Assembly: GCA_020847975.1 (NCBI GenBank)
Contig: JADLBD010000042.1
Coordinates: 124,001-188,000, forward strand
Source: Bryobacterales bacterium
GTDB taxonomy: Bacteria > Acidobacteriota > Terriglobia > Bryobacterales > Bryobacteraceae
Reading direction: 5' to 3'
DNA: 64,000 bases
The number at the start of each line of letters is the position of its first letter. Within the stretch, counting starts at the first letter, position 1. The notes below the pieces were generated by a model, which saw nothing but the letters and a program-made list of their open reading frames with translations, was not told the DNA's origin and ran no database searches. The position numbers and the translations under genes were made by a program. Positions 11,566-28,083 of the stretch are shown here, piece by piece.

Positions 11566-14500
11566 CTAGTTCGGTGAGGCCATCTCAGCCTTTTTCGTGG
11601 TCCAGGTCTGAGAACTCACTTGGTGCCATCCGGACAGTTTCGTAAAACCGGCCTGTGGACGCCATAGCACAACACCACCTGATACGTTTATTGCAACTGC
11701 GGAAGCATCCGGCGCCCAGTCCGTGTAGGATGTAAACTCATCTGGTGTTGCGTTATTCGGAAGACTGCCCGCACTTGTGGCTCTCCCACTTCTGGTATCG
11801 AGGAGCATCAAAGTACCATCGACCCTTAAAGCTGCAATCGTCTTTCCATCGGGCGAAATAGATGGCGCACGGTATTTCCCGGGCGGGCTGAGTCTCAGTA
11901 TGAACTGTGTCAAGTCAGGTACCCTGATGAGCAATAGCGACTCAAGAGTGTCGTCCTGGACGAGTACGAGATTGCCAAACCACTGGAACCATTCTGCGCA
12001 GCGCATATGGCTTTCAGTTGAAAAAAGAAAGCCGGCCTGTTGATTCTTCCAGTTCGGCGCGATGAGAGGAGTACGTTGACACTCGCCTTTCTCCATGGCG
12101 TAGTAACGTCGCTGAAACACTACGCCCTGTCCGTTCGGAGAAACCAATGATATCCAATTACCTCCCCAACGGTCCGGACGGGCTCCCGGACCAGGAAGCC
12201 ACGCATCGTCTAGTGTGGGGAACGGATAATCCACTTGGCCAACAGCTGTTCGTTCCGTTCGATCAACCAGGTCGATCACTTGGATTTGAAATCGACGGAT
12301 GCTTCTCGGGCCAAACTCACCGGCGACGGGAAATCGCGACATGCCGTCAGACCTTAAAAAGAAGACACTCCGCCCATCCAGGGTCAGATACACAAAAGGA
12401 AGAGCGATGTTTGTGGCTATCGGTTGATCCGAATTAAGAAGATAGAGGTCTCCCGATGCACCATACTCAAAGTTGTCTCTTCGCCCAACCGTATAAGCAA
12501 CAATCCCTGCAGGCGAGGCAGAGAACCAGTGCACCCGCGAGGAACTGTCTGATGTAAAGGTCAACTGAGTCTCAGCAAGTGACGTCGGGTCGAGTGACCA
12601 TAGGTCTCCGTCACGCATTCCCATCAGAACCGATCTGGCGGCTGGCGGCGCCCAGCCCAGGCCCTGGTCACGGATAATTCGTAGAGAGGTCATCGTATCC
12701 CTTATTCGTATTGGCGTTCGAGCCGCATCCGTAGAGACCGTCGGCTTAGGTGTCGGAACGGTAAGAGGAGGTCCATCGTCGGCGCGAAAGAGACGGCCCG
12801 CCATGAACAAACCCAATGGAGTCAACAACAGCAGAAGGACCACTTCTGCTAACTGAGAACGAATCATCGACCAAGGTTCGGTCTCGACCGTAAACTCAGA
12901 AGAAGTCACGCATTGGAGATTCGCAATCTCCCTGTTCCTTGCCGAGACGGCATCATGGAGTTCACGTGCGGATGCGTGCTCCATTTCGGGAGAGACTTGC
13001 CTGAGGTACTCTGCGGCGCATGTGGATGCGATCTGACTGGCAGTCTGCGGAGCAGGCACAGCATGGTCGGGCGGTAGCTGCCGCTTTGCCCATCTCTCGA
13101 TGTCGCCCCACAGCCACGATCTCCACGCAAGCGCAAGGCCGCCGGCTCCGAGTGCGACCAGTCCGGAGCAGAAGAGTGTCTTCAGGCTACTTGCCACTGT
13201 CGACAGGTCGCCCTGCCCTTTCTGCAGGGCGAAGCTGCCGAGTACGAATACCGCGAGCGCCCAAGCCCAGAAAACGAACTTCTCGCTTCCAAGCCATGGC
13301 ATATACACTGGCTCCACTAGGTCTCGAACCCGTCTCCATAGCAGTCCGCACTTGATGTGTCGCGCTTGATTGTGCAGGGCTTCCGCTTGACTACGATAGG
13401 TTACGAAACCGTTCTCACTGTAGTGGAAAAGCGCGAAACGCAAAGCCTGTACGGCGGTTACTGGAAGACCCGACAAGTCCTCCCTGCCATAGACGCGCTG
13501 CAACTCTGCTTTGGTCGTGTGAGAAAACTCCGTCCGGCGAAAGCCTGCTATTTCCGCCTCAAGGTCATGCCGAGGAGCGAGAATGAATTTGAGCGGAATG
13601 GAGGGATCCGAAGTGAACTCCTTGGCAGAATAGGGCACGCCAAGCGCAGCCAGTTCACGCGTGAACTGGCTGATTTCCCCGGCAAGCCGGCCGACTGAAT
13701 CTAGAGCGTCGCGTGAGGCAACTTGTGGCAAAGATGCTAATCGACCGGCCAGAGAGGGAGACGTCAAAGCACGAAGATGCTTGCCTCGATCCCACAGCAC
13801 TGCACACAATGCCGACGACGAATCAACAACATGCTTGACGTACTCGCGATCGAGACGAAAGCCCGCGATCGAAGGGTTCAGGCCGCCTTCACCGAGACGA
13901 GTGAGGACCAACGCTGTTGCGATGTCTCGATCATCCAAAGCCACATCCCGATCGATCTGCTCGTCGAGATCTGCGATCTTAAGTTCGTTCCGAATGTGAT
14001 GGCGCAACAACCCTTTGTAGAGAAGATCACGTGCCTCCGGCCACCGCTCGGCGCAACTCAAGTGAGAAGCCAAGCTCACCAAATCCCACTTCACGCCTCG
14101 ATATTCAAAGCCTTCATCGCGAGCTTTTGTTCCGTAGAAGTACCTCGGTGCCCTGCCTGCAAGGAAAGCGACAATTTCCTCGTGGCCCCATCGAAGCTGC
14201 CTGGAACTAGTGAGGAGCCCCTTCAAGAGGGGAATCCATACCGCTCTACCTGGGTTCTCCTCGCTTAACTCCACCATGCCCGCCCATATCCGATTCCTCG
14301 CGTAATCGAACTCAATCATGATGCTGTCGAACTTCTCTTGTACGGCAGCAGCATGGTCGGCGCGGCGAGCAATCTCTTCCGCAAAAACACCAGCGATTCG
14401 ATCGTAGGCATGGACGCCGTCAACCATCTCCTGTATGATTCGGCCCAAACTGAACCAGTCCCATTTCTCGAGCAAAGCATCGTTTCGAATATAGCGTCCA

Positions 14501-15171
14501 TAGGATTCCGGGGGGCTGTACAACTTTGTGCCGACGACTAGCGTGACGCCTCCTGTCTCAAGAGCCGAGACCGTACCATAATCGAGCAGTTTGAGGCGAA
14601 GTCCTCCTTCCTTTGTAGAGACGTGGATATTGTCCGGCTTAATATCGCGATGAGCGAGGCCTAGACTAGCGTGGAGGAAGTGAATTGCATTGCTCAGTTG
14701 TTCCAGCGCCGTGCGCACTTCGCCGTCGGAGGCGGGATGGTGAGAGTGATTCCATTCAGTTAACGTCTGTCCCTCAGCGAACTCATAGACCTCGATCCAC
14801 GCCTCTCCGTCGCCTTCGAAGTCATAGCACCGCAATAGGCTCGGGTGGTCGACGGCGAGGATTCTCTCGCGCAGCGTGGACAATTTGGCAAAGTAGTCCG
14901 GTCGTACGGTCGGATTGTGGAGGATCTTGACGAACACGGCCGCGGAGTCCGCCACGCGAACGCCCCGAAAGGCTCGGGCCTGGTTGCCGCTTCGCAGTTC
15001 TTCTACCAGCCGATACTGCCCATCTAGGATGAGCGCATCCGGAAGATAGTATCGACTCGGTCGCGCGAACCGCGAAGTGCCTTCCACGAAGACGGTACCC
15101 CGGTCGTCATCCAACCTGGTCTGGCGGTCATCGTTGGGCGTAGAATTTGTACTCATGCTCGCCTGTCTCAA
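11566..15171 (-). CDS. Ser/Thr protein kinase with TM segments and C-terminal TolB/WD40-like propeller
   Basis: AVFVKIL Lys, HRDIKPDNIHV catalytic loop, LLDYGT (DFG equivalent), hydrophobic segments FVFWAWALAVFVLGSFAL and AEVVLLLLLTPLGLFMAG, C-terminal propeller-like repeats (SPDGKTIAALRVDGTLMLLD). Confidence 0.85.
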   Translation of the reverse strand: MRQASMSTNSTPNDDRQTRLDDDRGTVFVEGTSRFARPSRYYLPDALILDGQYRLVEELRSGNQARAFRGVRVADSAAVFVKILHNPTVRPDYFAKLSTLRERILAVDHPSLLRCYDFEGDGEAWIEVYEFAEGQTLTEWNHSHHPASDGEVRTALEQLSNAIHFLHASLGLAHRDIKPDNIHVSTKEGGLRLKLLDYGTVSALETGGVTLVVGTKLYSPPESYGRYIRNDALLEKWDWFSLGRIIQEMVDGVHAYDRIAGVFAEEIARRADHAAAVQEKFDSIMIEFDYARNRIWAGMVELSEENPGRAVWIPLLKGLLTSSRQLRWGHEEIVAFLAGRAPRYFYGTKARDEGFEYRGVKWDLVSLASHLSCAERWPEARDLLYKGLLRHHIRNELKIADLDEQIDRDVALDDRDIATALVLTRLGEGGLNPSIAGFRLDREYVKHVVDSSSALCAVLWDRGKHLRALTSPSLAGRLASLPQVASRDALDSVGRLAGEISQFTRELAALGVPYSAKEFTSDPSIPLKFILAPRHDLEAEIAGFRRTEFSHTTKAELQRVYGREDLSGLPVTAVQALRFALFHYSENGFVTYRSQAEALHNQARHIKCGLLWRRVRDLVEPVYMPWLGSEKFVFWAWALAVFVLGSFALQKGQGDLSTVASSLKTLFCSGLVALGAGGLALAWRSWLWGDIERWAKRQLPPDHAVPAPQTASQIASTCAAEYLRQVSPEMEHASARELHDAVSARNREIANLQCVTSSEFTVETEPWSMIRSQLAEVVLLLLLTPLGLFMAGRLFRADDGPPLTVPTPKPTVSTDAARTPIRIRDTMTSLRIIRDQGLGWAPPAARSVLMGMRDGDLWSLDPTSLAETQLTFTSDSSSRVHWFSASPAGIVAYTVGRRDNFEYGASGDLYLLNSDQPIATNIALPFVYLTLDGRSVFFLRSDGMSRFPVAGEFGPRSIRRFQIQVIDLVDRTERTAVGQVDYPFPTLDDAWLPGPGARPDRWGGNWISLVSPNGQGVVFQRRYYAMEKGECQRTPLIAPNWKNQQAGFLFSTESHMRCAEWFQWFGNLVLVQDDTLESLLLIRVPDLTQFILRLSPPGKYRAPSISPDGKTIAALRVDGTLMLLDTRSGRATSAGSLPNNATPDEFTSYTDWAPDASAVAINVSGGVVLWRPQAGFTKLSGWHQVSSQTWTTKKAEMASPN

Positions 15172-15725
15172 TTCGCTGAGTTCTCGCCGTGAAAGTACTC
15201 CTCAAGTGCACCACGGGCGCCGCCCGTCGATTTCGGTGGGTCCAGGTACACCGTCAACCCCCTGGTCCCTAGAATGAGAAGGCCGGGTGTGTCGATGGCT
15301 GCGGACTGGCCTGGGCCCATCTCACGTCCGTTCAGCACACAAGGACTTCCGCTCTTGCACAAATTGCGGACCCACCAGCGGCCACCTTCGCGATAGAGTT
15401 CCGCATGTTCACGCGCGGTGCTGAGATCCTCCCGGAACCGGTCCGTCGCGATATCACCATTTCGGCCGAGAATCCGCCGCTCAAATATCTCGTCTCGCCA
15501 CTGATCGATGGTTATGCCCAACCGTGCCTCAGCGAGATCTCCGTCCGGTCCAACATGGCACTCTATCTGATCCTTGTCGGCCGCATCCTCCGGCAGTACC
15601 TTTTGCTCGGACTCGGAGCCCACAGGAACGAGATTGCAGCAGTCGCGAGGACACTGTGGAGGACGTCGGAGACGCTTCGTAGCGGTTATGCCACAGCCTG
15701 GCACTGTGCATCTATAGAGGGTCAT
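15168..15725 (-). CDS. Zn-ribbon + FHA domain protein
   Basis: N-term CTVPGC...CPRDC; FHA core RRILGRNGDIATDRFREDLSTAREHAELYREGGRWWVRNLCKSGSPCVLNG; 4-bp overlap with kinase gene. Confidence 0.8.
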   Translation of the reverse strand: MTLYRCTVPGCGITATKRLRRPPQCPRDCCNLVPVGSESEQKVLPEDAADKDQIECHVGPDGDLAEARLGITIDQWRDEIFERRILGRNGDIATDRFREDLSTAREHAELYREGGRWWVRNLCKSGSPCVLNGREMGPGQSAAIDTPGLLILGTRGLTVYLDPPKSTGGARGALEEYFHGENSAN

Positions 15726-16341
15726 GTGTAAGACTCCCAGTAAACCCTGCTGTGCGAAGGGTCTGCTGAATGGTCACCAGAGCCTTTCCAGGCAGAACAC
15801 CAGCTAGCCGAACCGAGGTGCCATCAATCGCGACATTGACGGACCGAGCCCACAAGACTTCGGCGGTATATCGACGCTCCGCCAACGGGGACAGAATACG
15901 GATCTCCTGGTTCGAACTCCCAAATAGACAACCCTCCGTCCTTAGCCTGGCAATGTATGGGCCAGCGACAAGAACATCAATGTTGGCAATAATCGGGCCG
16001 AATCGTCGTCGAAGTTGCGACCATGTAAAACCGGAGTACACGAGCAGATCTCCAGGACAAACAGATCGAACGCCTTCGATCAGAGACATCAGCGGGGCAG
16101 GCTGCTCGAAAGGTTCGCCCCCCGAAATCGTAACGCCGTCGGCACACTGAAGCCAAGGCTTGATGGCCGCCAGCAGTGCCTCGACTGAAACCACGTGCTT
16201 CGGCTCGATATCCCACGTCTCAGGGACAATACAACCATCACATTTGATCGAACAGCCCTGAAGCCAGATCCCGACGCGATTTCCGTACCCGAGACTAGTG
16301 ACCGGGAAGTGGCAACGGTTAAGGCAGATCTTCTTGTTCAT
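15712..16341 (-). CDS. radical SAM activating enzyme, NrdG/PflA-like
   Basis: QGCSIKCDGCIVPETW = CxxxCxxC; DGVTISGGEPFEQP GGEP motif; 14-bp overlap with FHA gene. Confidence 0.85.
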   Translation of the reverse strand: MNKKICLNRCHFPVTSLGYGNRVGIWLQGCSIKCDGCIVPETWDIEPKHVVSVEALLAAIKPWLQCADGVTISGGEPFEQPAPLMSLIEGVRSVCPGDLLVYSGFTWSQLRRRFGPIIANIDVLVAGPYIARLRTEGCLFGSSNQEIRILSPLAERRYTAEVLWARSVNVAIDGTSVRLAGVLPGKALVTIQQTLRTAGFTGSLTHDPL

Positions 16342-16347
16342 GGCTCC

Positions 16348-18264
16348 TTACATTCGAGAGACCTGTACGATCGGGACATTTCCATCCAGGTAAATCCTCT
16401 CAATGACGCCTCTCTCTCCATGCTGGAGGTCAACACGCCAAAGGGCGCGAGACAACGGGTTAATCAGATAAGTCTCTAGAAGGCTACCGATACCCCGCCC
16501 TCCCATTTCCCGTAAATTTGCTGTGCACTTCTCCACCAAGAAGCTATATGGAGTGCCCTGCTGTGCTTGGCCCGAACCGTCAAAGCCCAGCATGGTCAAG
16601 CGCACACCCCGCACATCCGCAACGCGGTCGAAAATGAGTCGGACGTTCTTTGCGAGAATGTCGAGAGCATCCTGCAGGCTTATGAAATTGAAGATTACGA
16701 TGTTGTCGCCGAAGCGATTCAACAGCTCGGGCCGCTTCAGCTCTTCCTTAAAATGTTGAGAAATCGCATGACGCAAGCGACTGTCGAGCTTCTCGAACGT
16801 ATCGTCCTCCGGAGTAACGTCGTGCATTCCCAGATTCGATGTGAAGATAATCAACGACTCACTGAAGTAGACCCGTTCACCCTTCCCGCTAGTGATGTGG
16901 CCGTCGTCCAATATCTGCAAGAACTTGTCCAGAATACGGGGATGCGCCTTATCGATCTCATCAAACAGCAGTACCGAAAACGGACGTTGGCGGATAGCAT
17001 CAGTCAGTTCGCCCCCTGCTTCGTAGCCTGTATAGCCAGGCGGAGCGCCTATCAGACGCTGGTCGGCATGTTCGTGATTGAACTCCGACATATCGAATCG
17101 TATGTAGGACGTCTCATCTCCGAACAGCCCTTCGGCGATAGCCTTGGCAAGCTCAGTTTTCCCAACGCCTGTAGGGCCGGCGAAAAACAGGACGCCTTTG
17201 GGCCGGTTGGAGTGGCGCGACGTTTGCGAACCGGACAAGCCCAGGACCGAACGGTGAAGAATATCCAGTGCCTTTTGGAGGGCCGCTTCCTGGCCCTTGA
17301 CGCGTCGACGCATCACTGATTCCGTCTGCGAAAGGCGCTCTCTTCCTATCTGCCGCCAGGGGTCCTCTGTAACGCCGAGCTTATACCGCCGCGACGCTTC
17401 CGCGATATCAGTCGCCACTAGTTTCTGCGTCGGACAAAAGCGGGCGATCGCCTGCAGATCGTTGATTAGAAGGCCATCAGTAGAGAGGGCAAATTCAGAG
17501 GCGGCCATACTCCTGGACTCCGGGGACAAATCGCTGAAGCCGGGAACGGCAGCCAGTAGAGCTGTGCCGACAAGTGAGCGGGTGCGGAAATCCGGGCGAG
17601 ATACAGACACTTGTCGAACGCGGGGATTATTCAGGGTAAACCAGGCCGGCAAGTCATTATCACGATCGCAGAGCCAGAATACCGTATTGTAGGTGTCTCC
17701 TGAGGGACCGACCTCGTAACTGAGAATCAAAGAACGAACAAAGGACTCAATCTCTCGCGTCTGGCCTTGCTCGGTCTGTCCCATGAGGTAATCGAACAGG
17801 ATGGCGCACTTTGAAGAATGATCGCTGACGAGGCGTTCCACGAGTTCGACTGCTGCGGCAAAGCTGCAGTGGGAATAGCATCGACTTGCCATACCGTCGG
17901 TTTTGAATTCCGGAAGGCGTGCTTTGTCAGGCTCGGTTGCGTTCAGCCAGTCGAGCGTAGACTTAACATGCGCGCGGCGGTCTTCGTCTGTGGGAACAAG
18001 GACTACAAGCCCGTAAAGCGGATAGACTCCGAGGAAGTGCTGATATCCCCGAAACGAAAGGTAGTCGACGATGCATTCAGCGGTCGTCCGCAAATCGTAG
18101 TCGCCGTCGCCCAAGGGAAAGGGATGCTTGTCGCGGATATTGCCGTGCAATGAAAACTGGGGCTTCACGGGAAGAAACCTGTCAATCTCGCGGAGCCAGC
18201 GTGGACAGGCATCGTCGGCGAAGAGCGCATGCAGCTTGGCGTCGGTGGTTCCAGGAGGATTCAT
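16348..18264 (-). CDS. Clp-type (ClpA/B-like) AAA+ ATPase
   Basis: Walker A FFAGPTGVGKTELAKAIAEGLFG, Walker B SVLLFDEIDKAH, FDMSEFNHEHADQRLIGAPPGYTGYEAGG pore-loop region, sensor IIFTSNLG. Confidence 0.88.
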   Translation of the reverse strand: MNPPGTTDAKLHALFADDACPRWLREIDRFLPVKPQFSLHGNIRDKHPFPLGDGDYDLRTTAECIVDYLSFRGYQHFLGVYPLYGLVVLVPTDEDRRAHVKSTLDWLNATEPDKARLPEFKTDGMASRCYSHCSFAAAVELVERLVSDHSSKCAILFDYLMGQTEQGQTREIESFVRSLILSYEVGPSGDTYNTVFWLCDRDNDLPAWFTLNNPRVRQVSVSRPDFRTRSLVGTALLAAVPGFSDLSPESRSMAASEFALSTDGLLINDLQAIARFCPTQKLVATDIAEASRRYKLGVTEDPWRQIGRERLSQTESVMRRRVKGQEAALQKALDILHRSVLGLSGSQTSRHSNRPKGVLFFAGPTGVGKTELAKAIAEGLFGDETSYIRFDMSEFNHEHADQRLIGAPPGYTGYEAGGELTDAIRQRPFSVLLFDEIDKAHPRILDKFLQILDDGHITSGKGERVYFSESLIIFTSNLGMHDVTPEDDTFEKLDSRLRHAISQHFKEELKRPELLNRFGDNIVIFNFISLQDALDILAKNVRLIFDRVADVRGVRLTMLGFDGSGQAQQGTPYSFLVEKCTANLREMGGRGIGSLLETYLINPLSRALWRVDLQHGERGVIERIYLDGNVPIVQVSRM

Positions 18265-19559
18265 GGCTTGGCGCTCTTACTGCGATCTGAGATCGCTGCG
18301 CGTCGCCCAGTTCGGCGGGCTGCCGCAGCGGCAGGGTGGAGTTTCACAGGCTTTCCGGGTGGAGTTCGGGAACGCACTTTCACGGAGAATGTCGTCGCCA
18401 GGGTATCATTTGCAGACCGCATGGCGGCACAGAGCCGCTCCTGGCTCTCAAGATCGAGTTGCCGTTCCCGTTGCGTACCGTTTGAGTCCTGGCACCGCAC
18501 TACTTCGGCAGAAACTAGCCCGCGGTCGCCCGAACACTGCACTTCCACCATGCGGTCGGGATCTCGACTGTCCCTGAGGAGCATGCTCTGGATGTCTTCA
18601 GATGTGAGAGTATTCATTCCATCTGCTGCTTCGAATCCGTGGATGCGGAGAGCATGGACCACGGCTCCAAGGATTCTTTGCCGTCGTTGGGCTGCCTCGA
18701 CTTGCCGACGTAGGTCATTTACACGAGACAAGAACGTGCTCTCATCCAAGTCGGGTGTCTCTTTCCGGAGAGCAGATAACGCGCTACGGAGTGTAGTCTT
18801 ATCGCCGCCATCGGTTGCGGCAATCGCAGCATCTAGATCAGCAAATTCCTTAGCGGCAAGCTGACCAACAGCTGAGGCCCTGCGGCCGCGTTCAATCTGC
18901 GCAGCTCTGGCCAATAACCTCCTTTTCGTTTGAAGTTCGAGCGCCGATCGAAGAGTGTCAAATTGGATCAGCCGCTCACGTGCCGGCAGTCGTGCAAGGC
19001 CCTCCAGTCGATCGATCAGTGCTCGGCGCTCTTCGTCTGACTTGACAGATGCGAGAATGGCAGCAAGTGCGTCCTCGATGTCTGCCGCAGTCCGATGCGG
19101 CGTTCCAGGCCCACCTCCACCCGCTTCGCGTGTCAGTTCACGGAGCTTCAGTTCTGATGGTGCGAATTTACTAGAGAGGTTCGCCAGCCGCTCAGATTCG
19201 CGATGGGCAATCGCTTGGAGTTCACGAAGGTATGAGGTTTCGGCTTCGAGTCGGGCGCGTCGCTTTCTCAAAACCACTTCGGCAGCCTGCACGTGGCGAA
19301 GATACTCCTCAGCGCGGGCTACTGCGATGCTCCCGTCCCCCTGGTTTGAGAGGGCCTCGATTGCAGATTCGACTTCGTCGATCGAGCGGAGATCCTCGGC
19401 TGGGTTTCCGCCGCACCGCAAGATGGCATCCACTTCTTCTTTTAGACGGCCAATTGTGCCTCGTGCCTGGTCAAGGTGATGACGGGCCAGCTGCCTGTGC
19501 CGGGATCTCGTCGATTCGTCCGGGAGAGGGTGGACCTCCAGAATTTCCGGAGAACTCAT
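18261..19559 (-). CDS. coiled-coil protein of unknown function
   Basis: Start chosen at MSSPEILEV (CAT at 19557-19559) with AGGAGTG RBS; heptad-rich helices; 4-bp overlap with AAA+ gene; annotated ORF extends to 19874 but would overlap the divergent gene. Confidence 0.65.
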   Translation of the reverse strand: MSSPEILEVHPLPDESTRSRHRQLARHHLDQARGTIGRLKEEVDAILRCGGNPAEDLRSIDEVESAIEALSNQGDGSIAVARAEEYLRHVQAAEVVLRKRRARLEAETSYLRELQAIAHRESERLANLSSKFAPSELKLRELTREAGGGGPGTPHRTAADIEDALAAILASVKSDEERRALIDRLEGLARLPARERLIQFDTLRSALELQTKRRLLARAAQIERGRRASAVGQLAAKEFADLDAAIAATDGGDKTTLRSALSALRKETPDLDESTFLSRVNDLRRQVEAAQRRQRILGAVVHALRIHGFEAADGMNTLTSEDIQSMLLRDSRDPDRMVEVQCSGDRGLVSAEVVRCQDSNGTQRERQLDLESQERLCAAMRSANDTLATTFSVKVRSRTPPGKPVKLHPAAAAARRTGRRAAISDRSKSAKP

Positions 19560-19846
19560 CTTCGGCACTCCTTTTAGCGTGGACGCAGGACGTACTGGCC
19601 GCCAAACGTCATGCGATGCGCGGCCACGAGCGTTCAACTCTAGAGTATAGTCCCAATTGGAGTTGCACGACAGCCCGGAACCCTGTGCCCGCAAGTGGAT
19701 GCAACGTCCCCCAATGGCGTGATCCCCCCGAGGTGCTCTCGTTTTCTGCGAAAGGATCATGCCTGCCGGTGGCGGCTGAGGCAAATGTGGTCGTACAACC
19801 ACACTTTGGGTAATTGTGCTACGATCGCCACCGAAGAAGCGCCGCG

Positions 19847-22800
19847 ATGACTCCTCCGCCACAACCAATACCAAACCACCTGGACGCTCGGATATGGGCG
19901 CTCACGGCCCGGATGCGAACGCTCGTTCGGCGAGTCCAGCACGAGGTTATCGAGCCAGCCCGCAAGAAGCTGACGGAAGTCACGGCGCAACTCGCCCAGT
20001 CGCGGGCCGCCGCACAGTCCGCCATCACGAGCGCGCAAAGCCAAGTGGAGAAGCCACGCCAAGAAATTGGCCGCCTGCTCAATGCAGCCCGCGAGCATCT
20101 TGCCGCTCAAAATGTCTTCGTCTCGCACTCTGCTGGGACGTCAGAGCCCCTTCTAGGGGAACCAGTCGATGCGCATAAGAAACTTCAGCCCTTGGCGGAA
20201 GCGACATCGCGAATGGAGTACCTCAAGTCCCTCGTCGAAGGGGACATCCTGAAGACTGCGAAACCGAAGGCCGCGTGGCGCCCAGATAGCGACGGGGGTG
20301 GGTGCGCAATGTTGATCGCTGGTTTCGTACTGGGTGCCATCCTTGCGAGTGCCTTCAAGAGCTTCTTCGGATTCGTTATCGGCTTCCTCGGCGTTTACGT
20401 CGCAGTGATGTGGTTCCTGCATAAAGAGCCGGTCTCCAGGCTCGAACAGGCATCCCGCCAGGCGAATGAGCTCGGACAGCACTTGCTCGGTTTGCTGGAG
20501 AAACACGTCGGGCTCGTCAGTAACGAAGCTCAACAGGCGATCAGCGCTGCTGAGAAGTGGTTTAAGTCGGAGACCGCTACGCTTGAAAAGACACTACATC
20601 CGCAAGTCGCCGCCCTCCAGCAGGATGTCACTTCGTTCGTGGCTGATTGCGGCTATTCGGGCGCCGAATGGACCGCGCACAGCTGGCGAAATTGGTCACC
20701 CGCTGGTTCGTCCGCGTTCGCCGCTCGCTTCGGTCTAGTCATCGCCGACCCAACAGATCTCAGGCAGCATCTGCCAACCCTGAATTTGAAGTTCACACTA
20801 CCTGCCTTGGTTCCGTTTCCGGAAGGTCGCTGTCTCCTGTTTAAGGCTTCGGGCACTGAGAAGGACCACGCGGTCAATGCTGTCCAGTCTCTGCTTACCC
20901 GTCTCCTCGCCACAATCCCTCCTGGCAAGCTGCGATTCACGTTCATCGATCCAATCGCTCTTGGTAATAGCGTCGCGCCCTTCATGGCATTGTCTGACCA
21001 CGAGGAGTCCCTCGTGAATAGTCGAGCCTGGAGCGAGCCGCAGCACATTGAACAACGATTGGGCGATCTGACCGAACACATGGAGACGGTCATACAGAAG
21101 TACCTGCGCACGGAGTTCAAGACCATTCATGATTACAACGAAGCTGCGCAGGAAGTAGCCGAGCCCTACCGCTTCGTTGTCATTTTTGACTTCCCAGTGA
21201 ACTTTACCGACAATTCCTTGCGCAGGTTGGTTAGTATCGCCCGCAATGGCTCGCGATGTGGCGTATACGCCATTGTCGTGAATGATGCTGCGAAATCCCT
21301 GCCCTACGGCTTCAGCCTCAGCGAACTTGAGCAGACGGCGACCGTTCTTGCCCATTCCGCGGCTCCGCCGCCTGGTGGGTTTCGATGGCAAGACCCCGAC
21401 TTCCAATCTTTGACGATTCAGTTCGATGCCCCTGCCCCCCGGCAGATTGTCGAGCGGATCGTCAGCTCAGTCGGTGGACTCGCTAAGGATGCCATGCGCG
21501 TCGAGGTTCCGTATGACAGACTTCTTGCTCAGGCGCAGCTTGGTGCGGATTCGTGGTGGAAAGCCGAGTCGACGAAATCCATTCGGATACCACTTGGACC
21601 TACCGGTGCTCGAAAGCTACAGTACCTAGTCCTTGGTGAAGGAATGGGCCATCACGCGCTCATTGTAGGAAGACCGGGTTCAGGTAAGAGTAACCTGATG
21701 CATGTCATTATCACGACGCTCGCCCTGACCTACCCGCCGGACGAAATGCGGGTCTATTTGATCGATTTCAAGAAAGGGGTCGAATTCAAGAGCTACGCAG
21801 ATCACAAATTGCCTCATGCAGAGGCGATTGCAGTCGAGAGCGAGCGCGAATTCGGCCTCAGCGTCGTAGAGCGGCTGGACTTGGAGTTGAAAAGTCGCGG
21901 CGACCGCTTCCGGGCTGCTGGAGTCGCTAACATCGCTGAGTACCGCGAGAAGACCCATACTCAGCTGTCCCGAGTGCTTCTCTTGGTCGACGAGTTTCAG
22001 GAATTCTTCACGCAAGATGATTTCATTGCACGCCAAACTGCTCTCATCCTCGATCGACTGGTGCGACAGGGGCGTGCCTTTGGCATTCATGTGATGCTAG
22101 GCTCGCAGACATTAGCAGGGAGCTACAATCTGTCCAGGAGCACCCTCGATCAAATGGCCGTCCGCATCGCCATGCAATGCAGCGAAGCTGATTCGCGTTT
22201 GATTCTCTCCGATGACAACCCTGCGGCGCGCCTCCTGTCCAGACCAGGGGAAGCGATTTACAACGCGGCGAGTGGACTCGTAGAGGGGAACAACCTGTTT
22301 CAAGTCGCGCGGTTCAGCGATGAGGATCGCGAGGAACGGCTAAAGCTTGTCTCGACTATCGCGCGCAATGCAGGGAAACCTGTTCCGGTTCCTATTGTTT
22401 TCGAAGGGAATGAGCTTGCCCACCTGACAGATTGTCGGCCACTGCAAAGGATGCTCGCGGCTGACGATTGGCCGTCTAAAAAGAGCGTGGACCTGCTGCT
22501 CGGCGATCCGATAGCCATTCGCGACCCCATTTCTGCTCAGGTCCGCCGGCAGAGCGGCCGTCACCTCCTGATCATTTCTCGCGATGAAGCAGAAGGCGTT
22601 GGCATGTGCGTAGCTTCGATTCTCAGTATCCTAGCGCAGCATCGACCTGGCACGACAAAGGTGTTCATAGCGGACTTCACGCTTGCAGATAGCGAATGGG
22701 CCGAACGCGCCGAAGAGGTCGAAGAGTTCTTTCCCCATGAAGTGAAAGTACTCAGTCGTCAGCGCGAGGTCGCCGAAGCTGTGAGAACTTTAAGCAATGA

Positions 22801-23263
22801 AGTCAGCCGCCGCACAGAAGCTGATCCTGATCCTTGCGCGATCTTCTTGGTATTGCAGGGCATGCAGCGAATGAAAGTTCTGCGGTCTGAGGACGAGAGT
22901 TTTAGCTACAGCGATGATAGCGCCACTCCGTCGGAGAAGTTTGCACATATTCTCAGAGAGGGTCCTGATGTTGGTATACATGTAATCGCTTGGTGCGATA
23001 CTGTCCCTAATGCTTCGCGTGTGGCCGACCGTCGAACAATGAACGAATTCGGGCTTCGTGCTGGAGGCGTAATGAGTGCGGACGATTCGCACGCGTTCTT
23101 TGATGACGCAGTTGCCTCGCGCATCGATAAGCCGCACCGCATCATCTTTTTTGACGAAGAACGGCCAGGACATCTTGACAAGTTTCGGCCGTATTCCATG
23201 CCACCACGCCAGTGGTTGGAAATGACCGGGCGCGCGCTAAAAGGGCGAACTAACCACAAGTAG
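19847..23263 (+). CDS. membrane-anchored FtsK/SpoIIIE-family ATPase, EccC/EssC-like
   Basis: TM pair GCAMLIAGFVLGAILASAFKSFFGFVIGFLGVYVAVMWF; Walker A LIVGRPGSGKSN, FtsK-type YLIDFKKGVEFKSYA, Walker B VLLLVDEFQEFF, GSQTLAGSYNLS; flanking Walker-deficient homologous-looking modules. Confidence 0.88.
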   Translation: MTPPPQPIPNHLDARIWALTARMRTLVRRVQHEVIEPARKKLTEVTAQLAQSRAAAQSAITSAQSQVEKPRQEIGRLLNAAREHLAAQNVFVSHSAGTSEPLLGEPVDAHKKLQPLAEATSRMEYLKSLVEGDILKTAKPKAAWRPDSDGGGCAMLIAGFVLGAILASAFKSFFGFVIGFLGVYVAVMWFLHKEPVSRLEQASRQANELGQHLLGLLEKHVGLVSNEAQQAISAAEKWFKSETATLEKTLHPQVAALQQDVTSFVADCGYSGAEWTAHSWRNWSPAGSSAFAARFGLVIADPTDLRQHLPTLNLKFTLPALVPFPEGRCLLFKASGTEKDHAVNAVQSLLTRLLATIPPGKLRFTFIDPIALGNSVAPFMALSDHEESLVNSRAWSEPQHIEQRLGDLTEHMETVIQKYLRTEFKTIHDYNEAAQEVAEPYRFVVIFDFPVNFTDNSLRRLVSIARNGSRCGVYAIVVNDAAKSLPYGFSLSELEQTATVLAHSAAPPPGGFRWQDPDFQSLTIQFDAPAPRQIVERIVSSVGGLAKDAMRVEVPYDRLLAQAQLGADSWWKAESTKSIRIPLGPTGARKLQYLVLGEGMGHHALIVGRPGSGKSNLMHVIITTLALTYPPDEMRVYLIDFKKGVEFKSYADHKLPHAEAIAVESEREFGLSVVERLDLELKSRGDRFRAAGVANIAEYREKTHTQLSRVLLLVDEFQEFFTQDDFIARQTALILDRLVRQGRAFGIHVMLGSQTLAGSYNLSRSTLDQMAVRIAMQCSEADSRLILSDDNPAARLLSRPGEAIYNAASGLVEGNNLFQVARFSDEDREERLKLVSTIARNAGKPVPVPIVFEGNELAHLTDCRPLQRMLAADDWPSKKSVDLLLGDPIAIRDPISAQVRRQSGRHLLIISRDEAEGVGMCVASILSILAQHRPGTTKVFIADFTLADSEWAERAEEVEEFFPHEVKVLSRQREVAEAVRTLSNEVSRRTEADPDPCAIFLVLQGMQRMKVLRSEDESFSYSDDSATPSEKFAHILREGPDVGIHVIAWCDTVPNASRVADRRTMNEFGLRAGGVMSADDSHAFFDDAVASRIDKPHRIIFFDEERPGHLDKFRPYSMPPRQWLEMTGRALKGRTNHK

Positions 23264-23277
23264 GAGGTTCCAAAACG

Positions 23278-23562
23278 ATGTCCACTCCAGATGTTCACGT
23301 TGATCCTGATCGCCTGCGAGCGATCGCCGAAGAACTCAGCATGTTTGCCAATGACGTGAATGCCGAGTTGACTGTGCTCAATACCGAACTTGCGAAGCTC
23401 GGCCGTTCTTGGCAGGATGACGAGTACAAGAAGTTTAGGAGCGCCGTCCAGCCACTCCAGCGAATCCTCGAACTGTTCCGCGAAGAAATCGAGCGGAGCA
23501 AGCCGGCTATGCTGGCTGATGCCGAGGCTATTCGCGCTTATCAGAGACTGCAAACACCGTAA
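23278..23562 (+). CDS. WXG100-like small helical protein (W-x-D variant)
   Basis: 94 aa, central LGRSWQDDEYKKFRSAVQPL between two helices; immediately downstream of FtsK ATPase gene. Confidence 0.7.
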   Translation: MSTPDVHVDPDRLRAIAEELSMFANDVNAELTVLNTELAKLGRSWQDDEYKKFRSAVQPLQRILELFREEIERSKPAMLADAEAIRAYQRLQTP

Positions 23563-23566
23563 GACC

Positions 23567-23839
23567 ATGCCAACAGCAATAGTCTCACCCGCTGAACTTG
23601 TTGCCTTTGCTCGGCAACTTGAAAAGACGGCAGAAGCCATTCAAAAAAGGAGGAACAAGACCACTCGCTTCATCTCAGATTCGCGGCATGTATGGAAGGA
23701 TGCGAAGTACGATCAGTTCTACAGGGTCTTCGATCAAACGATCAAGGAGCTAGACCACTTTGCACGGATGGCGAAGGAGTACTCGCAATTCTTGGAACGA
23801 AAAGCCGGGCTAGCGAAGAAATACCTCGGGCACAGGTAA
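23567..23839 (+). CDS. second WXG100-like small helical protein
   Basis: ATG 23567, 4 bp after previous stop; SRHVWKDAKYDQFYRVFDQTIKEL. Confidence 0.68.
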   Translation: MPTAIVSPAELVAFARQLEKTAEAIQKRRNKTTRFISDSRHVWKDAKYDQFYRVFDQTIKELDHFARMAKEYSQFLERKAGLAKKYLGHR

Positions 23840-23843
23840 TCTC

Positions 23844-24764
23844 GTGACACGAAGCGATGTGCACGCCTCCTACGAGGCGATCGAAGATTTTGCGAAGGCG
23901 CTGCACCGCTTTGCTGACGTTGCCCAGGAGAAGCTTAGGCACTCAGACTCCGCGATCCGCCTGGCTGTCGCGGAGCTTGAGGAGCGCCGGAGCGCACTTC
24001 GGCGTGAGATAGCTCAGCTTCGAAATGACATCGAGAGTGCCGAGGATGACCATGATGTTCGAGAGGCAGAACGACGCATGGAGGAGGCCGAGGACGCTCT
24101 CGCTCGTGTACGGAGGGCGCAGCGCAATTTGGAGGCGTCGATCAGGACCTACAAGCGCGAGGCGCAACGGCTCGACGAACTCACCACAACCACGACGCGG
24201 GACGCAATGGTTTATCTGCGCAGCGTCATCAGCGATTTGCGTGCCTACTTTGCTGCTGAGCATGGCGGTTGGCAGCCTGCAGCAGGGGGATTCGGTTCCG
24301 CGGTTGGAGAAGCGTATGCTAGCGGTGTCGCCGTCGCTGCTGGCACCGTCGATCCGACGTCATTCGCGCTGCCTGCCGGGTTTCGGTGGATTCCGCTGAG
24401 TGCAATCGACCTGGCAGGCGAGTTGGCCGATGTGAAGACTGAAGAAGATTTTAAGAAAGTGTCCTATGCCGATGTCCGCAAAGGGCTTGACTTGCTCCAC
24501 ACCGAGATATTGCCGGCTCTAGACGGAATCACGGATGCGTCAGGCACCTTTGCGCGGCTCGATGCGTTGAACGGAGTACCCTACGCGAAGGGGTTACAAA
24601 GGGTGTACGACGCTTTTTTTGGGACCGACTCTATCTACCTCTCCCGTGGCCCAGAGGGTTCCTTGTTTTCAATAACCAACGGTCGGCATCGAATACGAGC
24701 TGCTGCGGACGCTGGGTGGACGGCCGTGCCTGCGAGAACCAGCGATGGGATCAGAAATGGCTAG
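23844..24764 (+). CDS. putative T7-type substrate: coiled-coil N-terminus with ParB-like C-terminal domain
   Basis: GTG start 4 bp after previous stop; long coiled coil (LEERRSALRREIAQLRNDIESAEDDHDVREAERRMEEAEDAL); C-terminus IYLSRGPEGSLFSITNGRHRIRAAADAGWTAVPAR resembles the ParB/Srx GxHR core. Confidence 0.6.
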   Translation: MTRSDVHASYEAIEDFAKALHRFADVAQEKLRHSDSAIRLAVAELEERRSALRREIAQLRNDIESAEDDHDVREAERRMEEAEDALARVRRAQRNLEASIRTYKREAQRLDELTTTTTRDAMVYLRSVISDLRAYFAAEHGGWQPAAGGFGSAVGEAYASGVAVAAGTVDPTSFALPAGFRWIPLSAIDLAGELADVKTEEDFKKVSYADVRKGLDLLHTEILPALDGITDASGTFARLDALNGVPYAKGLQRVYDAFFGTDSIYLSRGPEGSLFSITNGRHRIRAAADAGWTAVPARTSDGIRNG

Positions 24765-24972
24765 ACATGATCGCACTCTTGACGAACTTCAGTCCGAGTG
24801 GCATAGGCTGCGAGATTGCTGGCTAACGACGCGCGGGCAATGGCGCGACGAAGTTGCGGTCAGCTTCGAGCGCGGGCGCTGGCAGGAGTGGGAGGATCGA
24901 GTCCCGGCCTTTCTTCGCGCACTAGAAGACCTTGACGCGATGTCTGCCAGATTACTGGAGGAGACCGACTAA
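24757..24972 (+). CDS. third small W-rich helical protein
   Basis: MARHDRTLDELQSEWHRLRDCWLTTRGQWRDEVAVSFERGRWQEWEDRV; W-R-D-E-V-A-xx-F pattern; overlaps previous gene. Confidence 0.55.
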   Translation: MARHDRTLDELQSEWHRLRDCWLTTRGQWRDEVAVSFERGRWQEWEDRVPAFLRALEDLDAMSARLLEETD

Positions 24973-25596: not shown

Positions 25597-27768
25597 CTAT
25601 CGGACAACGTAGTCGAAGGCAAAGATTTGATCCGTGCTGACATCGTGGACGGCGAGAACCGAGCCGTCCGGATGCAATCCAATCCATCGGCCAAACGAGG
25701 AATTGGGCGGGCGCACCTCCGTCAAATCGGCAAGTTTCGTGACGAGCCCTGTGCTGATCTCGGCGCTGTAGACCGACGGATATGGCGTACTCGGGTCGAG
25801 GAAAACCACCGCGCGGCTGTCTTGAGTCCAGGTTGGAAAGCCGGCGCGGGACCGTGTGACCTCGCGCCAGGAATTCTTTCGCGTGTCAAACACGTGCAGA
25901 TTAAAAGTCTCCGAGTGGATCGCGGCAATGTACTGACCGTCCGGAGACCAAGCGGGAGAGAACAGTCGAAGAGAGCCGGGAATCGCTGTTACCTGCTTTG
26001 AACGCAAATCGGCCACATGTAGCAGAATCTTCTCCGGGTCTTCTACGGAGAAGATCCTTCCGAACACGATCCGCGTGCCATCCGGTGACCAATCTGGCGT
26101 CGCCTCTTTGGAGCCACCTGGGACCAACTCTTCAATCCCTCCATCTTCAGCCGAGACCAAGTGGATCTTCCACGATTCGCCTGGCCGTCTGAGCATGACG
26201 GCGATCCGACTGCCGTCCGGCGACCAGCGGGGCTGCGCCGCCTGTAAAGGCGGTGCGAGTAACCTCTTCCGCTCGGTTCCATCCGACTTGCATCGCCACA
26301 ATCCCATGCCTGGCATCGCCGTGTAGGCGATTTGGCTGTGGTCGCGGGAGAACGAGACCGTTTCTGCTGAGAGCCCAGACAGAAAACGATGGTATCTCCC
26401 GCCCGCTGGCGTATAGCTGAGCACCTCGAACTTCGTCAACTGCCCCCTCAGGTATAATTGGCGCCCAACCGGGGTGAATGCGGGCCCGCGCCAGCTCATC
26501 GGCCCGCGAGTAAGCAGTACCGGGTTGTTGCCGCGGGCCGATGCCGGCTCCGCTATGCCCCACACGCTGTAAACCCCGTCGAATAAGGACTGGAACACGA
26601 AATAGCGACCGTCTGGCGTCCAACTCCCGGCCGAAATGTTCACGAGGTCCGGTCCTGCAATAGCAAGCCTCCAGAGCCTTCCACTCCGGACGTCCAACTC
26701 CCAAATCGAGTTCGCGAGCGTCTTGGAGTCCATCACGGTCAGCCTCAGCCTCCGACCGTCACGCGACCATCGTGGCCACCACCCATAGCCCGGCAGATCA
26801 ATCGTCCGATCCACGGTTAGACGGTTGCTCGAAATAAGGTACACCTGAAATCCCCGCGCAGCGGCAATCTGCGTGCCGTCAGGGGACCAGTTGCCGTCGA
26901 ATGCCGTTAAATCTCCTACCTTCCTCGGCATCGCCGGTCCTCCAACCGGCACAATCCACAGCGGTCCGTACTCGTCAAACGCGCCCGTTACATCCCGAAC
27001 CAGCAAGAACTTTCGATCCGGTGAAATGTCGCATGCGTAAGGGTTCGCAAACGGGACTGAGATCTCCTTCGTTTCTCCGCCATCCACCGGAACCTGGGAC
27101 AAGCGGTAGCGGCCGCCCTCGATTTCGGTGAAGAAAAGATGTTGCCCATCCGTGAGCACTGGCGACACTTTTGATCTGACCGAGTGGGTGATTTGGCTTG
27201 AGGGGCTGGCGAATTCGAGCCTCTTTGCCGGATCTCGAACCGCCCAAATGCCCAATCCTCCCGCTGCTAGCAGCGCCGGTGTGCCAATCACCAGCACTGC
27301 GCGCGTTAGACGGCGACGGCTCCAAGACGTGTCCTCTCGGACGAGCTGGGTGCCCGGCGACGGAGTTTGCTGCCCGTCAACGGCCGACGCCGCCGGAACA
27401 GGCAAATTGACTCGAGTCGACTGGTCTACGCTTTCTGTCACGTCCCCAATGAACCGGTAGCCCTCTCCATACACCGTTCTGATCCACATGGTTCCCGCGT
27501 CGTGTCTATTCAAGGCCGCGCGCAGTTCGGTCAGAACTCGGTCTATGGCGTTGTCGGAAACGTGGGTCCGCTTCCAAACCCGTTGTATCAGGTCCTCCCT
27601 GGTAACGATTCGATCCCGGTTCTCCAACAAGCAGACCAGAGTGTCAAACGGTTTTCCCGTCAAAGCGACCAGGTCTGTCTGCCACCTCAACTCCCGTCGG
27701 CGAACGCTCAGCTCGAACGCACCGAACGAGAAGCGGTGTTCGCAGTCGGATTGGGCGCTAACATTCAT
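25597..27768 (-). CDS. OmpR/CadC-type winged-helix regulator fused via TM to TolB-like propeller
   Basis: FSFGAFELSVRRRELRWQTDLVALTGKPFDTLVCLLENRDRIVTREDLIQRVW...YGEGYRF; TM RAVLVIGTPALLAAGGLGIWAV; repeated WSPDGxxI motifs. Confidence 0.88.
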   Translation of the reverse strand: MNVSAQSDCEHRFSFGAFELSVRRRELRWQTDLVALTGKPFDTLVCLLENRDRIVTREDLIQRVWKRTHVSDNAIDRVLTELRAALNRHDAGTMWIRTVYGEGYRFIGDVTESVDQSTRVNLPVPAASAVDGQQTPSPGTQLVREDTSWSRRRLTRAVLVIGTPALLAAGGLGIWAVRDPAKRLEFASPSSQITHSVRSKVSPVLTDGQHLFFTEIEGGRYRLSQVPVDGGETKEISVPFANPYACDISPDRKFLLVRDVTGAFDEYGPLWIVPVGGPAMPRKVGDLTAFDGNWSPDGTQIAAARGFQVYLISSNRLTVDRTIDLPGYGWWPRWSRDGRRLRLTVMDSKTLANSIWELDVRSGRLWRLAIAGPDLVNISAGSWTPDGRYFVFQSLFDGVYSVWGIAEPASARGNNPVLLTRGPMSWRGPAFTPVGRQLYLRGQLTKFEVLSYTPAGGRYHRFLSGLSAETVSFSRDHSQIAYTAMPGMGLWRCKSDGTERKRLLAPPLQAAQPRWSPDGSRIAVMLRRPGESWKIHLVSAEDGGIEELVPGGSKEATPDWSPDGTRIVFGRIFSVEDPEKILLHVADLRSKQVTAIPGSLRLFSPAWSPDGQYIAAIHSETFNLHVFDTRKNSWREVTRSRAGFPTWTQDSRAVVFLDPSTPYPSVYSAEISTGLVTKLADLTEVRPPNSSFGRWIGLHPDGSVLAVHDVSTDQIFAFDYVVR

Positions 27769-28083
27769 GCAATCAATCTGATTCCGCGATCCTCAGGATC
27801 GCCTCAGAATCACATCAGGATTTCTCAGCTAATTTGATCGATGGCGAATAGTATACTTTATTCCCGTCATGGGTGACTGGCGTACCCGATCCGCACGGAG
27901 CGAATCGCGGTACCCGCTTGAATTGCATCTGGTCTGGTAAGGAGCTTAGTCCGAAGTATGCGCGAGGTTGGTCCTCCCGTTGGACTCGCCGCCATAGCGC
28001 GGTTTGAACATGCCCGGACTGTCGGCGTTGGCAGTCGGTTGCTCGACGAAAACAAAGGCTACCTACTGCGACAGGTGAGGAGC

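What the first reader, a model, noticed from the sequence alone, without database searches (positions are those of the whole stretch)
11566..24972. Candidate undescribed secretion/conflict system: T7/ESX-like FtsK-WxD module divergent from a kinase-FHA-radical SAM-Clp operon
Seen: five minus-strand genes with overlaps or <10-bp gaps (coiled coil 19559-18261, Clp AAA+, NrdG-like radical SAM, Zn-ribbon/FHA, Ser/Thr kinase-propeller) face four to five plus-strand genes with similarly tight spacing (TM-anchored FtsK/EssC-like ATPase, two ~90-aa W-x-D helical proteins, coiled coil with ParB-like tail, small W-rich protein). Established: FtsK-type ATPase plus WXG100 proteins define type VII/ESX secretion; Firmicutes T7SSb additionally has EssB (pseudokinase fold) and FHA domains on EssC. 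Inference: here kinase and FHA are separate soluble/TM proteins, joined by an unfoldase and a radical SAM activase not part of any T7SS I know; no EccB/D/E, EsaA or EssA-like gene is evident. This could be a minimal, phospho-regulated T7-like machine.
Basis: partly seen in the sequence, partly recalled or inferred. Interest (0 to 1): 0.88.

Follow-up and report, generated by a model that had tools for sequence, protein, structure and literature searches.

The report
Two neighbouring conflict operons, not one
Two gene sets, each found separately in other bacteria (a small secretion-type motor with its helper proteins, and a kinase-unfoldase-radical enzyme set related to an operon of unknown function in Pseudomonas), sit back to back here, and the data do not show that they form one machine.

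Summary
Module A (19847-24972, +): a membrane-anchored EccC/EssC-like FtsK ATPase, two WxD proteins of the WXG100 superfamily (profile match to H. pylori HP0062, E 7e-17), a coiled-coil/ParB-like-tail candidate cargo and a small WxD-like protein. It fits the already described stand-alone ("mobile") T7SS-like WXG/FtsK operons. Module B (11566-19559, -): a coiled-coil / Clp-like AAA+ / NrdG-like radical-SAM / zinc-ribbon-FHA / kinase operon. Its core is conserved in most of 80 loci; the Proteobacterial form, kinase fused to a DUF4011 helicase-nuclease, matches the operon of the DLHK pseudokinase. The window belongs to a helicase-less branch whose kinase keeps its catalytic residues and in which FHA (sometimes PP2C) is present. 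No B locus contains A; the closest relative of A lacks B and that of B lacks A; of 26 other A-bearing genomes checked, two carry B, on other contigs. Both modules are absent from 199 class-mates and share base composition, so joint acquisition is plausible, but one integrated phospho-regulated secretion machine is not supported.

The parts
11566..15153 (-). Module B: Ser/Thr kinase (K / HRDIKPDN / DYG intact), middle region with three predicted TM segments, C-terminal likely TolB-type propeller (start may be TTG 15171)
   Evidence: Pkinase E 1.3e-27; motifs; TM; PD40 only E 0.06; 35% identical over 731 aa to L049
15168..15725 (-). Module B: zinc-ribbon-like + FHA protein; the Ser of the S-x-x-H motif is Ala here (AREH), Ser in L049 and others
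   Evidence: FHA E 8.5e-5; alignment
15712..16341 (-). Module B: NrdG/PFL-AE-like radical SAM activase, CxxxCxxC present
   Evidence: Fer4_12 E 5.9e-26; found by a leave-out profile at E 1e-57
16348..18264 (-). Module B: AAA+ protein, family-specific N-terminal ~310 aa plus ClpB-D2-like AAA_2 domain
   Evidence: AAA_2 E 3.5e-48; relatives at 177 places in genome contigs; leave-out profile E 4e-190
18261..19559 (-). Module B: coiled-coil protein with a conserved alpha/beta C-terminal domain (residues ~305-430)
   Evidence: 31% to L049; hhalign to MSGPK family prob 93.8, E 1.7e-7; model mean pLDDT 83; no PDB fold match at E<=0.001
19560..19846 (.). 287-bp divergent intergenic region between the two operons
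   Evidence: sequence
19847..23263 (+). Module A: FtsK/EccC-like ATPase; N-terminal coiled coil, two TM helices (~148-190), single Walker A (608 GRPGSGKS) in the middle ATPase region
   Evidence: PF01580 E 3.3e-31; TIGR03924 EccCa E 4.6e-36; PDB 4nh0 E 5e-35; TM/Walker scan
23278..23562 (+). Module A: WxD protein 1 (WXG100 superfamily)
23567..23839 (+). Module A: WxD protein 2 (WXG100 superfamily)
23844..24764 (+). Module A: coiled-coil hairpin + ParB-like tail (NGRHRIxxA); candidate cargo
   Evidence: coiled coil confident, tail low confidence; ParB_N/Noc weak matches; tail proteins of G254/G286 begin with a WXG100-type hairpin
24745..24972 (+). Module A: small WxD-like protein
   Evidence: 41% to G075 counterpart; weak WxD-profile match

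Best explanation
Two accessory conflict modules lie back to back. Module A is a stand-alone, membrane-anchored T7SS-like exporter: the FtsK/EccC-like motor (only the middle ATPase region has a Walker A motif) recruits the WxD (WXG100) proteins and drives export or delivery of the coiled-coil/ParB-like-tail protein, a Tox-ParB-like cargo; homology is shown, transport and cargo role are inferred. Module B is the helicase-less, catalytically competent branch of the operon that in Proteobacteria contains the DLHK pseudokinase-helicase: a kinase senses a trigger and phosphorylates partners that the zinc-ribbon/FHA protein reads, and this regulates a ClpB-like unfoldase with a coiled-coil adaptor, with a radical-SAM activase modifying an unknown component; gene set and motif covariation are shown, the order of events is inferred. 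Both were probably gained horizontally, perhaps on one island. There is no evidence that B controls A.
For: WxD profile matches HP0062 (3fx7, 2gts; E 7e-17) and EsxA/EsxB, all helical hairpins (PMC3397514). FtsK best NCBIfam EccCa, best PDB EccC/YukB. A alone, with the same five genes in order, in G075; partly in G254/G286; WXG - coiled coil - FtsK in Verrucomicrobia. ParB-like-tail proteins of G254 and G286 start with a WXG100 hairpin; a Helicobacter plasmid locus has WXG, a WHH/colicin-DNase protein, an SMI1/KNR4 gene and FtsK together. B: L049 has the same five genes in the same order and no FtsK relative in its genome; among 80 loci 69 rSAM, 68 kinase, 69 CC, 62 helicase. Helicase-fused kinases mostly have AVLT/HRD/GFG as in the P. 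aeruginosa DLHK member, helicase-less ones K/HRD/D(F/Y)G (PMC12599244); FHA hits occur only in loci where kinase and helicase are not fused. 0 of 80 B loci have FtsK or WxD genes.
Against: The two modules are divergent neighbours with near-identical GC (0.563 and 0.567 against 0.586 for the window), both absent from 199 class-mates, and 9 of 12 Verrucomicrobia-like B genomes also hold A against 22 of 340 in a phylum draw, so a functional link is not excluded. No secretion, phosphorylation or defence has been measured for any part. The window's FHA has lost one phosphate-contact Ser.
Confidence: 0.75

Rival explanations
1. One integrated, phospho-regulated T7-like secretion machine: kinase and FHA gate the FtsK motor, the AAA+ protein unfolds cargo, the radical SAM enzyme activates it.
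For: Divergent adjacency with a shared 287-bp region; matched composition; joint absence from class-mates; A enriched in Verrucomicrobial B genomes; an FHA-TPR gene lies in the A operon of G254.
Against: 0 of 80 B loci have A nearby; closest relatives of each lack the other; B in 38 non-Verrucomicrobial genomes occurs with no A at E<=1e-20; in Verrucomicrobia the two lie on different contigs.
Confidence: 0.12
2. Module A is not an exporter but an intracellular conflict device, as may be the case for the FtsK/WXG part of CoCoNuT operons: the motor acts on nucleic acid or protein inside the cell and the ParB-like tail is a DNA/CTP-binding effector.
For: CoCoNuT-type homologue L039 has no TM and sits with CARF-Card1, vWA, PP2C and kinase genes; the tail resembles ParB/Noc weakly; no T7SS membrane partners.
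Against: The window, G075 and Verrucomicrobial motors have two TM helices; WXG100 fusions to the tail; toxin-immunity-like neighbours in Helicobacter.
Confidence: 0.3
3. Module B is a host stress/proteostasis operon rather than defence.
For: ClpB-like unfoldase; DUF4011 and radical-SAM genes are core genes in every P. aeruginosa isolate (PMC10250203); no phage match.
Against: Patchy distribution (1 of 396 genomes in its own phylum; 2 of 340 Verrucomicrobia), plasmid carriage, helicase-nuclease matching PADLOC candidate PDC-S37, position beside a defence hotspot (PMC10250203).
Confidence: 0.35

Closest known systems
Stand-alone ('mobile') WXG/FtsK T7SS-like modules (Zhang et al. 2012 PMC3482391; Anantharaman et al. 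2012 as cited in PMC11090510; H. pylori HP0062/HP0066, PMC4978471)
   Same: WXG100 proteins, FtsK/HerA ATPase with only the middle domain active, coiled-coil partner, no other T7SS membrane genes
   Different: Two TM helices in the motor and a ParB-like tail protein; the phyla listed in the 2012 footnote do not include Acidobacteria
Type VII secretion (ESX/T7SSa, T7SSb)
   Same: EccC/EssC-like motor, WXG100 pair
   Different: No EccB/D/E, MycP, EssA/EssB/EsaA/YukD among the ten genes; the kinase looks catalytically competent, unlike EssB
Operon of the DLHK pseudokinase (P. aeruginosa Q9I0B5, PMC12599244)
   Same: AAA+ ATPase, organic radical activating enzyme and unannotated gene around a kinase-fold protein; Clp protein 42-44% identical to the Proteobacterial ones
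   Different: No helicase-nuclease fusion; kinase retains K/HRD/DYG; separate zinc-ribbon/FHA gene; TM segments and probable propeller
TerY-P triad and CoCoNuT III-A operons
   Same: Kinase-based signalling beside a WXG/FtsK unit in some loci (L039)
   Different: No vWA, PP2C, McrB/McrC or HEPN gene in the window locus

Membership tests
Stand-alone WXG/FtsK (mobile T7SS-like) module | WXG100-superfamily small proteins | tested here: met
   Pfam WXG100 E 4.8e-6 / 1.9e-5; profile to HP0062 E 7e-17
Stand-alone WXG/FtsK (mobile T7SS-like) module | Multi-domain FtsK/HerA ATPase with only the middle domain active | tested here: met
   Single Walker A at residue 608; EccC/EssC models align across 522-1051; the flanking inactive domains were not modelled
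Stand-alone WXG/FtsK (mobile T7SS-like) module | Occurs as a unit in other genomes | tested here: met
Canonical T7SS (ESX / T7SSb) | EccB/EccD/EccE/MycP or EssA/EssB/EsaA/YukD present | tested here: not met
   None of the ten proteins matches such a model; flanking genes scanned only in part
Canonical T7SS (ESX / T7SSb) | Export of WXG100 proteins | not testable with these tools
   needs secretome work
DLHK pseudokinase operon | AAA+ / radical SAM / coiled-coil gene set | tested here: met
DLHK pseudokinase operon | Pseudokinase motifs (AVLT, GFG) | tested here: not met
   window VFVK / HRDIKPDN / DYG
DLHK pseudokinase operon | Kinase fold fused to helicase-nuclease | tested here: not met
   No helicase domain in the kinase protein; helicase HMM negative in the window
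TerY-P triad | TerY-like vWA + PP2C + kinase | tested here: not met
   No vWA or PP2C in the ten genes
CoCoNuT | McrB/McrC-type core with coiled coils | tested here: not met
   No such domain in the ten genes
PADLOC defence systems (MADS, Mokosh, PD-T4-6) | Full-length match to system proteins | tested here: not met
   Matches confined to kinase or ATPase domains

The most novel reading that the evidence does not exclude
The two operons were brought together and now work as one phospho-regulated, membrane-anchored T7-like delivery system with its own unfoldase and radical-SAM activation step.
Probability: 0.1. Interest if true: 0.85.

Novelty: new variant of a known kind. Interest (0 to 1): 0.5.

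Why it matters
It dissolves an apparent new machine into two modules whose distribution can be stated. It also links an operon of unknown function found in Pseudomonas and other Proteobacteria, which appears to match the conserved flank of a P. aeruginosa defence hotspot, to a branch in which the kinase still looks active and sits with an FHA reader and sometimes a PP2C phosphatase. That gives a testable route to the function of the DLHK pseudokinase-helicase operons.

Tried and rejected
Reading A+B as one system: rejected as main reading on co-occurrence. Filing under TerY-P or CoCoNuT: key genes absent. Phage origin: no phage match for the Clp N-terminus, one partial FtsK match. AlphaFold of the ParB-tail protein: tail at low confidence, Foldseek uninformative. 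Coiled-coil protein: good model but no fold match. A leave-out sequence HMM of the Proteobacterial coiled-coil protein did not find the window's protein; only profile-profile comparison did. Anantharaman 2012 itself is not held, so it is cited through PMC11090510. No paper was found that treats the AAA+/rSAM/FHA/kinase set as a system.
Full report
Observation. The ten ORFs are present as described. The minus-strand set runs from the coiled-coil gene (start 19559) to the kinase (end 11566); the plus-strand set runs from FtsK (19847) to 24972; a 287-bp gap separates them. Pfam confirms kinase, FHA, Fer4_12/radical SAM, AAA_2, FtsK and, just under the cut-off, WXG100 for both small proteins. The second WxD protein most likely starts at ATG 23567.

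Module A is T7-like. A profile of 19 WxD proteins, in which W and D are invariant, finds H. pylori HP0062 (3fx7, 2gts) at E 7e-17 and 2e-16 and EsxB and EsxA at E 9e-11 and 4e-9. HP0062 is a helical hairpin with a WRD turn, clustered with an FtsK/SpoIIIE gene (PMC3397514). The ATPase scores best against EccCa and against EccC and YukB chains. In the window, G075 and Verrucomicrobial versions a coiled coil and two TM helices precede the ATPase; one Walker A motif is present; the CoCoNuT-type homologue L039 has no TM.

Module A is already a described kind. [quoted passage not shown] PMC11090510 describes an EssC-like ATPase plus two WXG100 proteins plus a coiled-coil nuclease and cites Anantharaman 2012 for stand-alone versions. 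PMC4978471 calls HP0062/HP0066 a WXG100 secretion system. G075, in the same phylum, has the same five genes in the same order, with FtsK 42-51% identical. Verrucomicrobial genomes have WXG - coiled coil - FtsK, some with a small WxD-like protein.

Cargo of module A. The ParB-like tail is conserved in acidobacterial loci and a Rhodococcus plasmid; its only database relatives are ParB/Noc at non-significant E. In G254 and G286 the proteins in this slot begin with a WXG100-type hairpin (20.7 and 27.7 bits; the best of 650 shuffled sequences reached 7.2 bits). Polymorphic toxins with Tox-ParB domains exported by WXG-type T7SS are described (PMC3482391). A Helicobacter plasmid carries WXG, a WHH/colicin-DNase protein, an SMI1/KNR4-family gene and FtsK in a row. 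Cargo status in the window remains inference; the tail model is low confidence.

Module B is a separate conserved operon. The Clp N-terminal region has relatives at 177 places in genome contigs; 80 loci were kept. Of these, 69 carry the radical-SAM gene, 68 the kinase, 69 the coiled-coil gene and 62 a DUF4011/SF1 helicase-nuclease fused to the kinase; 64 have rSAM, kinase and coiled coil together, and contig ends explain many gaps. L049, an uncultured Acidobacteria contig, has the window's five genes in the same order (Clp 56%, rSAM 47%, FHA 37%, kinase 35%, coiled coil 31%). Leave-out profiles confirm Clp and rSAM (E 4e-190, 1e-57); the coiled-coil protein is linked only by profile-profile comparison (prob 93.8, E 1.7e-7) and by operon membership.

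Two branches of B. In helicase-fused proteins the commonest motifs are AVLT / HRD / GFG (40 AVLT, 56 HRD, 55 GFG), the motifs listed for the P. [quoted passage not shown] In loci without the fusion (window, L049, L050, L053, L055, L058, L059, and the Aristaeella plasmid L043, which has a separate DUF4011 helicase gene) the kinase keeps Lys, HRD or HKD, and DFG or DYG. FHA matches occur only in loci without the fusion; L043 by annotation and L050 and L052 by reading the sequence also have a PP2C phosphatase in the operon. So FHA goes with an apparently active kinase and is missing where the kinase is degraded. This covariation is the best evidence that the FHA protein reads the kinase's products. 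Caveat: the window's FHA has Ala for the usual Ser of S-x-x-H. [quoted passage not shown] aeruginosa defence hotspot cDHS1; that this is the same operon is inferred from the descriptions, not from a sequence match made here.

Are A and B one system? Against: no FtsK or WxD gene in any of 80 B loci, 52 of which have at least 8 kb on both sides. G075, the closest relative of A, has no Clp-type relative; the L049 genome, closest relative of B, has no FtsK relative at E<=1e-20. Of 50 B genomes, 9 have A; all come from a Verrucomicrobia-like set of 12 (one labelled Proteobacteria, one Akkermansia in its title), and A and B lie on different contigs. In a Verrucomicrobia draw of 340, 22 have A and 2 have B, both with A, one of them being the centre of the draw. 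The enrichment is real in number but confounded by lineage and genome size. For: both modules are absent from 199 class-mates including two of the same genus, share GC and are adjacent, so joint acquisition is plausible. The assembly has about 7% estimated contamination, so this contig's origin is not beyond doubt.

Mechanism. A: membrane-anchored motor, WxD substrates/chaperones, ParB-tail cargo; delivery inferred. B: kinase-to-FHA signalling controlling a ClpB-like unfoldase with a coiled-coil adaptor and a radical-SAM activase of unknown target; inferred. B's Proteobacterial relatives carry helicase-nucleases that match PADLOC candidate PDC-S37, which favours a conflict role, but core-gene status in P. 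aeruginosa leaves a house-keeping role open.

Verdict. Real, conserved and interesting, but two modules of known or partly known kind rather than a new secretion system. The new elements are the TM-anchored acidobacterial/Verrucomicrobial WXG/FtsK variant with a WXG-fused ParB-like tail in relatives, and the FHA-bearing, kinase-competent branch of the DLHK-type operon.

Noticed in passing
L050 1104-7423; L052 7671-11875: Verrucomicrobial loci carry radical SAM, zinc-ribbon/FHA, a PP2C-like phosphatase (read from sequence) and AAA+ in a row, followed in L050 by a kinase with HRD/DFG: a writer-reader-eraser set.
   Followed up: partly
L042:13489-17457: Rhodococcus plasmid FtsK of the module A kind is fused to an N-terminal TerD domain, with more TerD genes nearby.
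   Followed up: partly
window 27958-36366 and 36348-38279: Large RHS-repeat protein with repeated Ig-like segments and an apparent Sec-type leader, followed by a second, shorter RHS-like ORF; possible polymorphic toxin locus close to module A.
   Followed up: partly
window 25597-27768, minus strand: OmpR/PhoB-type DNA-binding domain fused to a PD40 beta-propeller.
   Followed up: partly
window 39372-60691: Serine recombinase, OLD/AAA_15-like ATPase with UvrD_C-like partner, RecD2-like helicase and DnaG-like primase: looks like a mobile element.
   Followed up: partly
window 1652-10722: Two large proteins, the second with repeated GGTG..YTKGD(I/L)LVA segments like phage tail fibres; the first has no Pfam match.
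   Followed up: partly
window 18261-19559, residues ~305-430: Confidently predicted alpha/beta domain (pLDDT about 90) with no PDB fold match at E<=0.001.
   Followed up: yes
L044 4719-16691: Acinetobacter plasmid pNDM1_010055 carries a distant Clp-like/4Fe-4S pair beside a Mokosh-like helicase and a PIN-domain gene.
   Followed up: no
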